Shown here piece by piece: positions 30,865 to 37,509 of a stretch of 64,000 bases of DNA (position 1 is its first letter; every line of letters begins with the position of its first letter). The stretch spans positions 1 through 64,000 of the forward strand of contig VUYT01000038.1 of NCBI GenBank assembly GCA_008802785.1, given 5' to 3'. The stretch is from Symmetrospora coprosmae (Eukaryota > Basidiomycota > Cystobasidiomycetes > Symmetrosporaceae). The position numbers and the translations under genes are program-made. Below the pieces are notes generated by a model. The model did no database searches. It saw nothing but the letters and a program-made list of their open reading frames with translations, and was not told the origin of the DNA.

Positions 30865-32074
30865 TCATGCTTTCCCAAGGCACACCACTGAGCCGACTGC
30901 TAAATTTGAGCACTCGCTGTTGATGGTCGGGTTGTACGAGTATAGCTGCTCGAGGGTGAGGCCAATGTCTTTGCTCCAGTCGAGAAGGCCGAGGCAGATC
31001 TCGCCCTTCATGACGGTGTGGAAGCGCGTGCAACCCTGATCGGCCGTGAGCGAGCCGGGGATGCTGGAGAATGGGTGAAAATTGCGTCAGTGCCATGACC
31101 TGCGGGACGTGTACAGGGCTACGGTACTCACAGATTGACGGGTTCCTCTGAGACGGGCGCGGCGCCTGCGGGCAGTTCACCGGTGGCGTTGCGGATGGGG
31201 CTGGTGCCGCTCGATGAAGGAGCGGGCGCAGTGTCTGACGCTGACGAGTCAGACGATGCCTGTGCCTTCGAAGACTGCTCGGCGGCGATCTTGGGGTTGG
31301 ATCGCGCGTCGCTCTCGGTGGCTGCAGGAGTGGCTGTCAAGCGAGATGGAGAGCGCGTCAGTCCGAGTGCCACAGGTGAGCGATGGAAGAGCCTTTCCAC
31401 TTACAAGTTGGCTGGGCCTCCTGTGTTGTAGTAGATTCGGCGTGCTGCTGCTCCTGCGAGCCTGTCTCCGAGGCTGGCGTAGTCTCAGACCAGGCAGACG
31501 AGGACGGCTCCGACCAAGAGGATGAAGCTTCGCTAGGAGTGAAGGACGGCTCGACTGCAGATGAGCTCTCATCTTCGGCCTGCTCTTCCTCCTCGCAGTC
31601 CCAGTCGTCCTCCTCGTCCGCGTCCGTCTCGGCAGCGGCCGCATCGCGCTTGACGTGTCCGTTCCTGCTGCTGAGGTGCCTTGCGAGCGGGAAGGGCATT
31701 GCCAGGTCGGCGTTGTAGCTGATGTGCACAGGGGCGGCCGTGATGAGGCTGTCCTCCGCCTGTGCCGGGCCATCGCCGTGCGGGTGCAGGGCGCGCTGCC
31801 CGGCGCGGTGCCTGAAGGCGTTCTTGCCGTCGACGGCGCGACCCCTGCTGCGTCGGAGAGGGGCGTTCGCTCCCGGTGCGACGGCGATGACGGGCGTGGC
31901 GGGACGCCATGCGGGGCGCAGGAGAGCTCGCTCGCGCGCGACGAGGGCGCGCTCTTGCAGCTCGCGTGTGAAGAGGGGCGCAGGAGCGATGGGCGAGGCT
32001 GGGGAAGGGTGTGCCCCAACGCCCAGAAGGCCAAGGGTGGAGGCGAGTACGAGGGTGGTGATGGAGAGCTTCAT
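30865..32074 (-). CDS. Secreted LysM-like protein A
   Basis: The start at 32074 gives a signal peptide MKLSITTLVLASTLGLLGVGA. A basic, Arg-rich propeptide-like stretch follows, with a Lys-Arg site in GHVKRDAAAA that fits Kex2 processing; after it come an acidic block (DADEEDDWDCEEEEQAEDE), a Ser/Thr/Glu-rich stalk, and a second exon with more Ser/Ala. The last exon (about 31070-30865) codes a single LysM-like module: GCTRFHTVMKGEICLGLL, LTLEQLYSYNPTINSECSNL and SVVCLGKA. The order hydrophobic-T-V-x-x-G-E-x-C, L-x-x-L-x-x-x-N-P-x-I-N-x-x-C-x-N-L, V-x-C matches LysM (chitin/peptidoglycan oligomer binding). Three exons with phase-consistent joins. It is the first of three adjacent genes of the same plan. 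A chitin-binding or masking effector or wall protein is the family-level inference. Confidence 0.78.
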
Positions 32075-33263
32075 GATACTTGTTGGTGGGATGGTGAAGG
32101 AAGGAAGAGAGATGGGAAGGTAGCGAGTGAGGATATGCCGAATGCGTGGCTTTGTGGGTGCTGAAGAGCTGTGTGATGTGTCGCTGTTTGGTGCGTGTTG
32201 TCTCAGGTGAGGAGGATGAAGATGGGCGGAAAGGGCGGAAAGACGAGCGAGCGACAGTCAGATACGGGAGTGAGGGGAAGTGCTGAAGAGCAGTGGAGGT
32301 CCGTGGGAGGACGTCAGTTAGAGAATGGGGGATGTGCAAGGGAGCGTATGGATGGGGTTAATGCAGAAAAGAAGCAAGAGCAGAAGGGCAGCCGAAGCCG
32401 CCCGCAGCGGGACAGCAGCACAGCATATTTCGTGTTTATTGACTTGAGTGCGTGCGTGTTTACACGTCCCTGCGTCCCAAGAGCTTGTGCCTGCCTGTCC
32501 CGCTCGGCGGGCATATCGGCACCGGCATGCATGAGCCGCATCTCGAGGAATGGCATGTCCCGTAAAGAGGCGGCGGCGCGTTCAGAGGGAAGACGCGTCT
32601 TAGGAGTTGAGTGCTCTCGAGCAGTCAGTGCGTATTATGTGTGCGATACGTAGAGTAGGAGGTGGTCTTCTCTGCCTCAACCATCTCCTTCGTCCTTCCA
32701 ACTCGTCCCACAGGATTGCCGGGAGCCTGAGGGCAGGAGGTGGGGTAGTGCTCAGGCCTCTGCGCTCAGACCACCTCCGCCTCTTGTCCATTGTACCCGA
32801 GGGAGCAGTACAGCGGTTGTCGAAGAGCAAAAGGGTGCAGCATCAACAGCACAATGCCATGAAGACAGAAGGAGAAAAGTTGCTTGCGCAGCGGCCGCCC
32901 GAGGCCATGGACTCAGTCCACGCCCCATCCACGCCAGAACTACGGCGAACATCGAAAAGCGGGGAAAAGGCACTACGGAGGACAACGATGGAACAGAGAA
33001 GAGAGAGAGAGAGCTTTGTGCCCCAAGGGAGGACTTTCCAGCAGGCCGCCTGGAGGGGTAGAGCCGCTTATGGGGTGCCGGGCCGTAAGGAGTACACACT
33101 CAAGCCCGGATGACGACTGCCGTTCTTTGATTCCAGCCAGGGTATCAAGCTGAGGAGATAGCAGCCGCACAGCTGACATCAGCTCTAGCTGGCCGGTCGT
33201 GCTACAAGCGGACTAAGACGGGCGCGCCAACTCACCATGACGGATCCCGAAACTGCGGCCTCT
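32075..33263. other. Upstream region of LysM-like gene A
   Basis: About 1.2 kb between genes A and B. The 150 bases next to the gene A start are CT-rich on the minus strand (CTTCCTTCACCATCCC), like those of the other secreted genes. Plus-strand frames of 152 and 168 codons have Arg/Gly/Ser-rich composition without domains and are not called. Confidence 0.45.
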
Positions 33264-34084
33264 TCATTTGGAAGAGACAGGGAGAGGCTCCTCGCCTCTG
33301 TAACCCACGCAATAACTGGTAGAGATTTGCAGGTTCCAGCATCTGTCGTCTACAGCCGGGTTGAGGCAGTAGAACTCCTCGAGGGTGGTGCCGAGGTCCT
33401 GGTTCTGCTCGAGGAGCTCGAGGCAGATGTCACCGGCGACGACCGTCTGGTAACGGACGCAGCCCTCCTCGACCGTGTATGTGCCCTCAGCGCTGCCGGT
33501 ACGTCAAGCCACGTCAGCCATGTGCACTCGATGGACACGCCTTATCGGCCAGCCTTCGGGCGGACTCACATATTCTCCGGGGTAGTCAGGTCGCCAGGAA
33601 TGGTAACGGCGACAGGCGAGGGAAGGGGCACAGGTGCGACCTCGGGCGCAGCCACCTCAGGCTTCTGCTCCTCCTTGGCCGGTGCGGGGGCTGGCGAAGG
33701 TGTGGTCGGAGGCTCTGGCTGCGGTGCCTCCTCTACGGCGGGAGCGGGAGCGGGCGCGGGAGCAGCCTCCTCCTCACTGCCATCATCCTCCACCCAGACC
33801 TCTACCCACTCCTCGTCGTCACCGCAGTCCTCTGGCCCTGCAGCCTCGCCGCGCTTGCTGAGCATGAAGGCGTCAAACGCGCCGTTCTCGACTGCTCGGC
33901 GGGCAGCTCGCTTGCCCAGGTCTGAGCGTCGGAGAGGGACGGAGGCCGACCCGACGACGGCGGGGAGGGCGGCGCGTGCGTTCAGGTTGGACAGGTCAAA
34001 CGACTCTGGCGCAGGGAAGGCATTGGCCCTGACGGTGCTGCTGGCAATCGCAATGGCGGCGAGGATGTTGAGCGAGGAGAGCAT
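33264..34084 (-). CDS. Secreted LysM-like protein B
   Basis: The start at 34084 gives MLSSLNILAAIAIASSTVRANA, a signal peptide. Dibasic sites occur in SDLGKRAARR and LSKRGEAAG, then an acidic block (CGDDEEWVEVWVEDDGSEEE), then a Pro/Ala/Glu-rich linker with repeats such as PAPAPAVEEAPQPEP. One intron (about 33567-33500, donor GTGAGT, phase 2) joins the second exon, which codes the LysM-like module: EEGCVRYQTVVAGDICLELL, TTLEEFYCLNPAVDDRCWNL and TSYCVGYRGEE, stopping at 33264. The Cys just before the module (GC), the V-x-x-G-D-I-C turn and the N-P-x-V/I block match gene A. The intron phase matches the gene A intron before the same module, which supports common descent. Function is inferred from LysM only. 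Confidence 0.78.
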
Positions 34085-34866
34085 GATGGGCGGGGCAGTT
34101 GCCAGGGGGAGGTGTAGATGTTGAGCTGTGGTGATGTTGGGTCGGTAGTGTGATGTAGTCTGGAGCAATGGATGGACTGCTGTGCCGTTACTGTATTCCT
34201 TTGCGATGTTGAGTGGTCGTGTATCGAGTGAGTGAGCGTGGATTGGAGATGACGAGGGTGCAAGAAGGTAAACAAGAAGGCGAGCAACGAGAAGAGCAGA
34301 AGACGGCGAGGCAAAAGCGGCAAAGAGACAGGAGAGAAGGACAACCACACAAAGGCGAACGGAGGACGGACAACGAGCACGGAGGCGGAGGTCTTGAGCG
34401 GTCTGCGGTGCTGCGACAGGGGTTCCAAGGGGTCGGTGCGTGCACGCCCAAAAGCCTAGCACGTGATGGGTCCGTGCGTTCTTGCTCTGGACGAAGCATT
34501 CGAGCCAAGGGCTGCGTGCGCGCAGAAGTGGAGGAGAGAGGCTAAGACTGCTTGTGTGTGCGAGACGAAACTACGATACAAGGAGCATGGCTTCACTGCA
34601 ATGTGATGGGTCCCGCTGAGCGATGTCAGGCCCGTCGAGGGCCTCATCAAGCGCCAGATCACCACCGTCCACCCGCTGAAAGCTAAGCACTGCTGTTCTC
34701 TGATTGACTGCATGTTCCCCCTTCTATGCTACTGCACTGTGCTGCTACTACTGATTCGTTAAGATTGGGTCTCAGACCCGTGAGCAGCGTCGCTGAAGGA
34801 CTCCCAGAGTCCCGATGTGACGATAGCAACCGGTGCCCGTCCCGTTTCTTCCAGCATCATCGTGAT
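34085..34866. other. Region between LysM-like genes B and C
   Basis: About 780 bases. Gene B's leader side is CT-rich on the minus strand (CCTTCTTGTTTACC, CTCTTCTGC). A short stretch at 34665-34700 (GAAAGCTAAGCAC) recalls the 5S rRNA A box, but the rest of a 5S gene is absent. No gene called. Confidence 0.45.
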
Positions 34867-36549
34867 CTAGACAAAGCTGTAGTCGACCATGAAGATGCCA
34901 TCGGCGCCGTTGCCAAGCGCCTTGAAAAGACCATCCGACAGGTCGATTTGCCTGAGCAGAGACAGATGTTGCGCACGTCAGCCAAATGCCACAGATACGG
35001 GAGAAACGTAGGCAATTAGACCCACTTATCCTCGCAAGAAGGGCAGAGGTCGGCTACGACGGCCTCGATGGTCTTCCCAGTCTTGCCGTTGGTCAGCTGG
35101 ACCTTGCTGCCGCATCGTGCACCGCCGTTGTACAAGCTCGGGTGGAGCGCAACAATGAACGCATCATCGCCGTTGGCCTTGCCGCACGCGCCCTTGTTGC
35201 CGTGCTGGTAGTAGTAGCTCGCCTTGCCGTGGTACTGGGCAGTAGCGGGCGCCGGCTTGTTCTCCGCGGGCTTGTCCTCCTTCGCGGGAGCAGGGGCGGG
35301 CGCCGGTGCAGCAGCCTTGGTGGGCTCGGCAGGCTTCGAGTACGAAGATGATGAGGAGGAAGAAACGGAGGCCGGAGCAGGCTTCTGCTCGACAGGCTTC
35401 TCCTCGGCAGGCTTGTCAGCCGCCTTGGTGGCTGCGGCTGCAGCGCTCGATGAAGACGACGACTCGACAGCGCCCTCCCTAGCGGCTCCCTTGGCAGGCT
35501 CGGAAGCAGCAGGTGCGTCTCCACTCGAGATGCAGCTGTAAGCGAGAAAGGAATCGACGTCAGTCAATGGCTGCATCGTAACTTCGCAGATAGGAAGGCT
35601 CAGCACGTACTAAGAAACGCCGATCTGGAGGTTACGGCAGTTGGCGTTGACACTCGGGTTGTTCTTGTAGAAGTTGTCCAGCTTGGTCTGGTCCTTGTCG
35701 CCCAGGAGCTTGTAGCACGAGTCGCCGGCGGCAGCCTTGGCGAATGCGGTCTGTGGGAAGCGGAACAAGAGCATGTGAGCGGTGCATAGTGGCACGATTG
35801 TTCCGGAAGGCATAGACGCACACAGCCCTTCTCGGCAGTCAGGGCACCCTCAGCGCTGTTTGACGGGAGGCTCGGTGTCAGCGAAGCAGATCGACAGATG
35901 TGTTAGAATATTGAGAGGATACGCACAGATCGCTTGGGGTAGAGGCGGTGGGCTTGGTGACGAGGTTGACGGCGCCGTCACCGGCCGCATTGCCGGATCC
36001 GGACTCGTCGCAGTCGTCCTCCTCGTCCTCTGCTTCGTCGTCTTCAGCGTCGCACTCCTCGTCATCCTCATCCTCATCGTCTTCCTCGCACTGCTCGTCT
36101 CCGTCATCATCGTCTTCATCGTCCTCAGCGCACTCTTCATTGTCCTCGTTGTCCGTCGTAGCAGTGGCCGACGTAGTGTAGCTCTGCTCGCCCTCGCCGC
36201 GCTTGGCGACCTTGAGCGCGTTCGTCTCGACCTGATTCGAGTGCAGGAGGGCCTCGAGCGCCTTGGAGATGAGGTACGGGCTGCCGGCGAGGGAGGCGTG
36301 CTTCTGCTGGACCTCATCGCCGTCCGTTGCATTGCGCGCGGCGACAATGTCCCCTATGGTGTTTTTGCTGACGACGGGCGCAGTGGACGACGACAGGTCC
36401 ACCTGTCGGCGGGCTGGGGCGGCGTGGTTGCCGTGGTGGTGTCGGCGCTGCACGAACCGCTCGTGCTTGCTGGAGCGAGAGCCGTGCGCAGAGACGAGGG
36501 GGAGGGACGCAGTGAGAGCCAGGGCGGCGGTAGAGAGTGTGATCTTCAT
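34867..36549 (-). CDS. Secreted LysM-like plus double-psi beta-barrel protein C
   Basis: The start at 36549 gives MKITLSTAALALTASLPLVSAHG, a signal peptide, then a His/Arg-rich stretch, a dibasic site (VAKRGEGEQ) and a very acidic block of Asp/Glu with spaced Cys. The next exons code a LysM-like module: LTAEKGC, then TAFAKAAAGDSCYKLL, FYKNNPSVNANCRNLQIGVS and CISSGD. A Ser/Ala/Lys/Pro-rich linker with PAPAPAPAKEDKPAE repeats leads to a double-psi beta-barrel domain: HGKASYYYQHGNKGACGK, DDAFIVALHPSLYNGGARCG, KTIEAVVADLCPSCEDK, and in the last exon QIDLSDGLFKALGNGADG and stop at 34867. The DPBB matches RlpA-like/barwin/expansin-like single-domain proteins. About five exons. Wall loosening or ligand binding is inferred; no hydrolase motif is certain. 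Confidence 0.8.
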
Positions 36550-37122: not shown

Positions 37123-37509
37123 ATGGCTACCTCCGACCCTAGCTCAGGACAAGATGCGAGTAGCGCATCAGAGCAGAGCGATGGTACCAAGGTGCGGGGC
37201 CTCGGTAGACATCTCTGACCCCCCGGCGGGACTGACTTGCCTCGATAGATCACCATGCTCTACTTCGCCTCCGCACGCACTACCGTGAACCTCTCCTCCG
37301 AAATCCTTCGCCTCCCGAGCACTTCCACACGCGTCTCAGACCTCCCTGCCATCCTCCTCGAAAAGCACGAACAGGTCGCGCAGGACCTCCGAGCCGTCCT
37401 CGCCAAGAGCGCGTTCAGCGTCAACGAGGAGATTGTCTACGATCTCGCAGGAACGCTCCTACACGAAGGGGATACTGTGGCCATCATCCCACCCGTCTCG
37501 GGCGGGTAG
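37123..37509 (+). CDS. Molybdopterin synthase small subunit (MoaD/MOCS2A type)
   Basis: A ubiquitin-like sulfur carrier that, as a C-terminal thiocarboxylate, gives sulfur to precursor Z in molybdenum cofactor synthesis. Two exons: MATSDPSSGQDASS...GTK, then a 57-base intron (GTGCGG to CGATAG), then ITMLYFASARTTVN, LPAILLEKHEQVAQDLRAVL, FSVNEEIVYD, LLHEGDTVAIIPPVSGG. The C-terminal Gly-Gly directly before the stop and the D-x-V-A-I-I-P-P-V-S-G-G ending are diagnostic of MoaD. Length is about 108 residues, with a short Ser-rich head that bacterial MoaD lacks. The large subunit (MoaE/MOCS2B) is not next to it; in animals the two overlap on one transcript, and no such overlap is seen here. Confidence 0.92.

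What the first reader, a model, noticed from the sequence alone, without database searches (positions are those of the whole stretch)
30865..36549. Three adjacent secreted genes of one plan: signal peptide, Lys-Arg site, acidic block, single divergent LysM-like module
Three consecutive minus-strand genes share an order of parts that is more specific than coincidence: N-terminal signal peptide, Lys-Arg (Kex2-like) site, acidic block with Cys, low-complexity linker, and one LysM-like module with an extra Cys directly before it (QGC, EGC, KGC). In A and B the intron just before the module has the same phase. The overall sequence is otherwise very different, so this looks like an old tandem family under fast change in the linkers. 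LysM proteins bind chitin or peptidoglycan oligomers; a cluster could serve wall masking, host or microbe interaction, or mating-wall remodelling. The processed acidic N-terminal part could be a released peptide in its own right.
Basis: partly seen in the sequence, partly recalled or inferred. Interest (0 to 1): 0.75.

Follow-up and report, generated by a model that had tools for sequence, protein, structure and literature searches.

The report
LysM cluster with a loosenin fusion
Three neighbouring genes of a basidiomycete-like fungus encode secreted proteins that each appear to carry one sugar-binding LysM module behind a cleavable front part and a strongly acidic stretch, and one of them also carries a wall-loosening (loosenin) domain; together they look like a small wall-binding and wall-loosening family, not a new kind of system.

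Summary
Genes A (32074-30865), B (34084-33264) and C (36549-34867) each encode a signal-peptide-like start, a Lys-Arg site, an acidic Cys-containing block, a linker and one LysM module. The modules are homologous (36-45% identical; 0 of 2000 shuffles as good), and a phase-2 intron lies at the same place before all three. The 'extra Cys' is the first of four cysteines typical of fungal-type LysM. Pfam's LysM model misses the modules, but their profile finds solved four-Cys LysM domains at 5e-8. A LysM-free loosenin gene elsewhere in the genome shares the Lys-Arg plus acidic-Cys plan. In these four proteins the propeptide is basic and Cys-free, the mature chain strongly acidic. No dibasic site follows the acidic block, so a released acidic peptide is not supported. 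Best reading: Kex2-processed proteins acting on the fungus's own chitin/chitosan wall, C as a LysM-targeted loosenin. Binding, processing and expression are untested; the fold prediction was inconclusive. New variant of a known kind.

The parts
30865..32074 (-). Gene A, exons 32074-31405, 31333-31132, 31063-30865; 356 aa
   Evidence: open frame, GT-AG introns of 71 and 68 bases, phases 1 and 2
31646..31651 (-). Gene A Lys-Arg site (residues 142-143), end of the basic propeptide (22-143, net +10, no Cys; signal peptide end set by eye)
31568..31624 (-). Gene A acidic block (residues 151-169), 14 of 19 Asp/Glu, 1 Cys
31064..31131 (-). Gene A phase-2 intron directly before the module
30877..31032 (-). 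Gene A LysM module (Cys 302, 314, 342, 352)
   Evidence: phmmer against PDB: 5bum 1e-5, 4pxv 0.0022; profile of four modules 5.2e-8; these two chains are LysM by Pfam
33264..34084 (-). Gene B, exons 34084-33570, 33492-33264; 247 aa
33851..33856 (-). Gene B Lys-Arg site (residues 77-78), end of the basic propeptide (net +4, no Cys)
33767..33832 (-). Gene B acidic block (residues 85-106), 13 of 22 Asp/Glu, 1 Cys
33493..33569 (-). Gene B phase-2 intron directly before the module
33306..33461 (-). Gene B LysM module (Cys 183, 195, 223, 233, plus 214)
   Evidence: phmmer against PDB: 5bum 0.0052 (a designed repeat protein, 4yxx, with no stretch passing on its own, ranked above it at 0.0014); shuffle test against A and C
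34867..36549 (-). Gene C, exons 36549-35927, 35855-35822, 35750-35611, 35535-35026, 34951-34867; 463 aa
   Evidence: the relative P0001 reads across the places of all four introns
36199..36204 (-). Gene C Lys-Arg site (residues 116-117), end of the basic propeptide (net +6, no Cys)
36004..36153 (-). Gene C Cys-punctuated acidic block (residues 133-182), 39 of 50 Asp/Glu, Cys 140, 154, 166, 180
   Evidence: compared with the C65 gene, P0001 and P0002
35856..35926 (-). Gene C phase-2 intron directly before the module
35529..35824 (-). Gene C LysM module (Cys 219, 231, 257, 267), interrupted by two further introns
   Evidence: C plus P0001 profile: 4pxv 2e-5, 5bum 0.0056; alone in a 258-aa query only 0.15
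34870..35243 (-). Gene C C-terminal double-psi beta-barrel (loosenin) domain, residues 364-463
   Evidence: PF03330 5.2e-7, 30.2 bits over a cut-off of 28.8; 9ce9 2.5e-17; the model of the relative P0001 best matches 9ce9

Best explanation
A tandem family of secreted preproproteins. The signal peptide is removed, a basic Cys-free propeptide is cut off at Lys-Arg by a Kex2-type protease, and the mature protein starts with an acidic, Cys-bearing tail, then a flexible linker and one fungal-type LysM module that binds chitin (GlcNAc) in the fungus's own wall. In gene C the LysM module places a loosenin domain on chitin so that it can loosen the network non-hydrolytically. The basic propeptide probably neutralises the acidic tail until cleavage; the tail may then bind chitosan or cations, or form disulfide-linked oligomers. 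Shown: gene models open and consistent, homology of the modules, DPBB domain in C, charge pattern, site positions. Inferred: secretion, Kex2 cutting, chitin binding, loosening, role of the tail.
For: Module homology and LysM relationship; shared intron; C's DPBB nearest to fungal loosenin PcaLOOL12, likewise the model of P0001; the same plan without LysM in the C65 loosenin gene and, by eye, in P0002; KR a few residues before the DPBB in three of the seven DPBB places, L016, L067 and L069; basic pro / acidic mature in 4 of 4 proteins computed; a relative, P0001, with the C layout; the genome has 8 GH18 matches and 9 polysaccharide-deacetylase matches, 6 of them over the cut-off; P. carnosa loosenins bind alpha-chitin more than cellulose, best near pH 5, and some affected mycelial density (PMC9888185, abstract and passages).
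Against: No Pfam LysM match above cut-off for any module. The structure model of the B module was poor and gave no match; the LysM part of the P0001 model had blocks of 10 residues at pLDDT 47-75, and none of the 50 Foldseek rows shown for that model is a LysM entry by its title. Kiwellins follow the loosenin and an expansin closely in that list. P0001, P0002, P0003 and P0005 are under the PF03330 cut-off. Propeptides are not alignable beyond chance for most pairs (shuffles as good, of 500: A-B 20, A-C 53, B-C 54, C-D 133, B-D 308, A-D 358; D is the C65 gene), so the shared plan upstream of the module may partly be convergence in low-complexity sequence. No expression, binding or processing data.
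Confidence: 0.6

Rival explanations
1. LysM effectors: A and B (and C) scavenge or shield chitin fragments so that plants or other hosts, or bacteria, do not sense or attack the fungus.
For: Secreted LysM-only proteins (A, B) have a layout like that of LysM effectors (recalled); LysM proteins of insect pathogens, of the four-Cys type, are reported as effectors in Beauveria (PMC5600412, abstract start and passages).
Against: Gene C's fused loosenin domain and the C65 relative point to wall work; deletion of four LysM genes in Penicillium expansum one at a time had no significant effect on virulence (PMC5662087, passage); the lifestyle of this organism is unknown.
Confidence: 0.2
2. Peptides cut from the propeptide or the acidic block are the product, LysM being a wall retention tag.
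For: Several KR/RR sites lie in the propeptides (A 74, 142; B 52, 58, 62, 77; C 35, 47, 116), so basic fragments could be released; in another DPBB gene (L068, C22) an acidic block lies between two KR sites.
Against: No dibasic site after the acidic block in A, B, C or the C65 gene; propeptides show little conservation between the genes.
Confidence: 0.08
3. The DPBB of gene C acts as a protease inhibitor, like Streptomyces papain inhibitor or RsRlpA, with LysM as wall anchor.
For: Papain inhibitor 5ntb matches the DPBB (6.8e-5; rank 11 at 2.3e-8 for the P0001 model); the NCBIfam papain-inhibitor model matches P0001 at 2.9e-12, under its cut-off; RsRlpA of Rhizoctonia solani is a DPBB protease inhibitor (PMC7662947, abstract and passages).
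Against: By sequence the fungal loosenin 9ce9 matches far better (2.5e-17); by fold the difference is small (1.6e-10 against 2.3e-8).
Confidence: 0.1

Closest known systems
Fungal-type (four-Cys) LysM domains (CBM50, name recalled)
   Same: Four conserved Cys, GD/GE-x-C, NP motif, C-x-NL near the end; sequence match to solved four-Cys LysM domains
   Different: Below the Pfam LysM cut-off; single module behind an acidic Cys-bearing tail and a basic propeptide
Loosenins / loosenin-like proteins (PcaLOOL12, PDB 9ce9)
   Same: Gene C DPBB domain, four Cys, no second expansin domain
   Different: Fused to LysM and to a Cys-punctuated acidic block; PcaLOOL2 is reported to have an N-terminal extension with four extra Cys, predicted helix-rich (PMC9888185, passages)
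Bacterial LysM wall proteins with a barrel-type wall-active domain, such as YocH (recalled, not tested)
   Same: LysM that places a wall-active domain on the wall
   Different: Bacterial peptidoglycan substrate; no propeptide or acidic block known to me
Kex2-processed repeat peptides (recalled)
   Same: Secreted precursor with KR sites
   Different: No repeated peptide units between KR sites seen in A, B or C

Membership tests
Fungal-type LysM | Four conserved Cys in the module | tested here: met
   All four aligned in 4 of 4 modules (A, B, C, P0001); definition from PMC5662087 passages
Fungal-type LysM | Sequence relationship to solved LysM domains | tested here: met
   Profile of 4 modules: 5bum 5.2e-8, 4pxv 9.1e-8; A alone 1e-5; B alone 0.0052; C plus P0001 2e-5. 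The letters of both chains as aligned match PF01476 at 3.5e-18 and 1.8e-16
Pfam LysM PF01476 | Score over the curated cut-off of 20.9 bits | tested here: not met
   A 13.0 bits; B, C and P0001 no match; 0 matches at E up to 0.001 in the whole genome
Fungal-type LysM | beta-alpha-alpha-beta fold (order recalled) | tested here: inconclusive
   B module pLDDT 49.7, two helices, no Foldseek chain
Fungal-type LysM | Binding of chitin oligomers | not testable with these tools
   Needs purified protein
Loosenin (gene C) | DPBB domain of the expansin D1 kind | tested here: met
   PF03330 30.2 bits over 28.8; 9ce9 2.5e-17; fold match for the P0001 relative. Relatives P0001, P0002, P0003 and P0005 are under that cut-off
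Loosenin (gene C) | Four Cys in the DPBB and no second (CBM63) domain | tested here: met
   Cys 383, 407, 430, 433, aligned with 9ce9; the chain ends with the DPBB
Loosenin (gene C) | Non-hydrolytic loosening of wall polymers | not testable with these tools
   Needs a bench assay
LysM effector | Shields chitin from host sensing | not testable with these tools
   No expression or host data
Kex2-processed released peptide (acidic block) | Candidate peptide flanked by dibasic sites | tested here: not met
   No KK/KR/RK/RR after the acidic block in A, B, C or the C65 gene

The most novel reading that the evidence does not exclude
The Cys-punctuated polyanionic block is a genuine wall module: kept silent by a basic propeptide, exposed by Kex2, it binds the cationic chitosan of basidiomycete walls and cross-links through its regularly spaced Cys, so that LysM (chitin), acidic block (chitosan) and loosenin domain form a three-part wall-loosening tool. 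Its presence in LysM-only, loosenin-only and fused proteins would make it a mobile building block; the Pfam scans of these proteins gave no family for it over a cut-off.
Probability: 0.25. Interest if true: 0.6.

Novelty: new variant of a known kind. Interest (0 to 1): 0.42.

Why it matters
If right, LysM proteins of such fungi are undercounted: Pfam's LysM model finds none in this genome although three LysM genes are present, and a study that looked for secreted LysM by PF01476 reported it in the lichen ascomycete only, not in its two basidiomycete yeasts (PMC8355462, passage). The genome also offers a natural LysM-loosenin fusion beside LysM-only and loosenin-only relatives, which would allow a direct test of how loosenins are aimed at chitin, following the report that they bind it (PMC9888185).

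Tried and rejected
Released acidic peptide: rejected, because no dibasic site follows the block. Homologous propeptides: not supported beyond chance for most pairs; A-B is borderline (20 of 500 shuffles as good). Shared promoter motif: 8 octamers common to the three upstream stretches against a mean of 0.57 (0 of 200 resamples reached 8), one 9-mer (9 of 200 reached it), no 10-mer; most are CA- or CT-rich, so I did not pursue it. DPBB remnant after A or B: the genome search with C's C-terminal part listed none there at E up to 10. Relatives of B's module: 9 candidates, none at E up to 10, so the three-gene order could not be examined elsewhere; the search with all of C scored only the 7997 candidates sharing most words. 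Acidic-Cys pattern over the genome: 27 matches against 12 for the reversed control; 4 of 27 lie in this family (B 1, C 1, C65 gene 2). None of the other 23 has both 45% acidic residues and 2 Cys in the 40 residues around it, but B fails that test too (38%, 1 Cys) and A does not match the pattern. The protein query with the acidic block found only itself and missed the C65 block, so that search is insensitive there; likewise the PF03330 search of the genome did not list gene C itself, so its 7 places are a lower bound. Organism: a phenylalanine ammonia-lyase fragment is nearest to 1y2m and 1t6j in the PDB, which I recall are Rhodotorula enzymes; with nearest protein hits in Mycena and Cylindrobasidium this suggests a basidiomycete, no more. 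Literature: among the papers listed by ten searches (lists were cut to the best 4-20 each) I saw none on a fungal LysM-loosenin fusion or on the acidic-Cys block; I read listings, abstract starts and the passages named, no whole paper.
Full report
Observation. The minus strand of 36549-30865 holds three genes that read open from ATG to stop when GT-AG introns of 68-77 bases are removed: A of 356 aa, B of 247 aa, C of 463 aa. Each begins with a hydrophobic signal-peptide-like stretch (judged by eye). Each has a Lys-Arg site shortly before an acidic block with Cys: the KR ends at residue 143, 78 and 117, and the blocks hold 14 of 19, 13 of 22 and 39 of 50 acidic residues with 1, 1 and 4 Cys. Each then has a low-complexity linker and one module of 49-51 residues from its first to its last Cys (positions).

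The module. A, B and C modules are 36-45% identical in pairs and score far above shuffled sequence (0 of 2000 for each of 3 pairs). Four Cys are aligned in all four modules examined, P0001 included. Against the PDB, A alone finds the chain 5bum at 1e-5 and 4pxv at 0.0022; B alone finds 5bum at 0.0052, below a designed repeat protein that has no stretch passing on its own; C within a longer query reaches only 0.15. A profile of the four gives 5.2e-8 and 9.1e-8, with enterotoxins and others only from 0.47 upwards; a profile of C and P0001 without A and B gives 2e-5 and 0.0056. Both chains are named Chitinase A; their letters, as aligned, match Pfam LysM at 3.5e-18 and 1.8e-16, so they serve as a bridge. 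Pfam's LysM model does not pass its cut-off on the window's modules and finds nothing in the whole genome at E up to 0.001. A paper on Penicillium offers a reason: fungal-type LysM, with four conserved Cys, differs from the general pattern in SMART and Pfam (PMC5662087, passages). Fold prediction did not help: the B module came out at mean pLDDT 49.7 with two helices, and no PDB chain was offered.

Common descent. C has two further introns in or at the edge of the module. Searches of the genome with A and with the C-terminal part of C find modules only in these three genes; other hits are DPBB parts or weak low-complexity and linker hits. A profile search of this genome was not on offer.

The domain not mentioned. 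Gene C continues through a Ser/Ala/Pro/Lys-rich linker into a double-psi beta-barrel: PF03330 at 5.2e-7, just over its cut-off, and PcaLOOL12 (9ce9), a fungal loosenin, at 2.5e-17. The relative P0001 (JGI, no name) has KR, acidic Cys block, LysM and DPBB in the same order (45 of 63 identical in LysM; 70% in the DPBB) and reads across the places of all four introns of C, which supports the model. Its AlphaFold model has the DPBB at pLDDT mostly above 90 and best matches 9ce9, followed by an expansin and kiwellins; its LysM part has only middling confidence. By Pfam the relatives P0001, P0002, P0003 and P0005 stay under the PF03330 cut-off, and the NCBIfam expansin model matches them at 1.4e-8 to 2e-13, also under its cut-off.

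The acidic block in other proteins. A gene on contig C65 (L015; my model, 354 aa) has propeptide, KR, a block with 34 of 39 acidic residues and 3 Cys, a Ser-rich linker and a DPBB, but no LysM. P0002 (JGI, no name) has the same layout by eye, and P0003 (Mycena metata) has an acidic Cys stretch before a DPBB-like part; P0005 (Cylindrobasidium) has no such stretch. C, the C65 gene and P0002 share words such as CDAEDD. Over the genome an acidic-Cys pattern gives 27 matches against 12 in the reversed control; 4 of the 27 lie in this family, and none of the other 23 has both 45% acidic residues and 2 Cys around it; but gene B fails that test as well and gene A does not match the pattern, so the strong Cys-punctuated form belongs to C and the C65 gene.

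Charge. In A, B, C and the C65 gene the propeptide is basic (+10, +4, +6, +13) and has no Cys; the part after KR is strongly acidic (-30, -30, -43, -45) and holds all Cys (signal peptide ends set by eye). No dibasic pair follows the acidic block. This fits a propeptide that shields an acidic tail until Kex2 cuts; it does not fit a released acidic peptide. Three other loosenin-like genes of the genome (L016, L067, L069) have KR a few residues before the DPBB, out of seven DPBB places listed, of which C1 and C41 were not modelled; that makes KR as the start of the mature protein plausible for the family.

Function. Loosenins of Phanerochaete carnosa bind alpha-chitin more than cellulose, best near pH 5, and some affected mycelial density (PMC9888185, abstract and passages). 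LysM binds GlcNAc polymers (established for the family; abstract start of PMC4083421). The genome holds 8 GH18 matches on 4 contigs and 9 polysaccharide-deacetylase matches on 6 contigs, 6 of them over the cut-off, so a wall with chitin and chitosan is likely (inference). I therefore favour a role on the fungus's own wall: LysM as anchor, loosenin in C as the active part, and the acidic tail as a possible chitosan-binding or cross-linking part (speculative). Effector use against hosts remains a rival, as does protease inhibition by the DPBB (RsRlpA, PMC7662947).

Surroundings. Of 20 selected reading frames of the window, 11 gave a Pfam match at E up to 0.001 (one, PEMT, under its cut-off). Next to the cluster are a glycogen phosphorylase frame ending near 30.1 kb and a ThiS-like frame at 37249; Vps36, Pex6 and AAA, an RNB nuclease, an aminotransferase, Rtf2, a Kelch protein and a phosphoesterase lie further off. 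Nothing there suggests a functional cluster beyond the three genes; frames without a match were not studied.

Verdict. New variant of known kinds; moderate interest.

Noticed in passing
L015 (G000:C65:323000-326000): Loosenin-like gene with propeptide, KR, a three-Cys acidic block and DPBB but no LysM; shares CDAEDD words with gene C.
   Followed up: yes
L068 (G000:C22:734800-737400): DPBB gene with an acidic block between two KR sites, followed by a Lys-rich block ahead of the DPBB; here an acidic peptide could be released. Gene model not built.
   Followed up: no
L014 (G000:C1:516500-521000): Gene with what looks like two DPBB-like parts joined by a long Glu/Pro/Ser-rich linker; not modelled.
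   Followed up: no
L016, L067, L069: Small loosenin-like genes with KR a few residues before the DPBB; only L016 was spliced.
   Followed up: partly
whole genome (G000): Pfam LysM PF01476 finds no match in the genome although three LysM genes are present, so counts of LysM by Pfam may be too low in such fungi.
   Followed up: partly
PMC6476726, section 3.5: The Rhodotorula mucilaginosa genome paper calls its ten CBM1 proteins LysM proteins; as I recall, LysM is CBM50 and CBM1 a cellulose-binding family.
   Followed up: no
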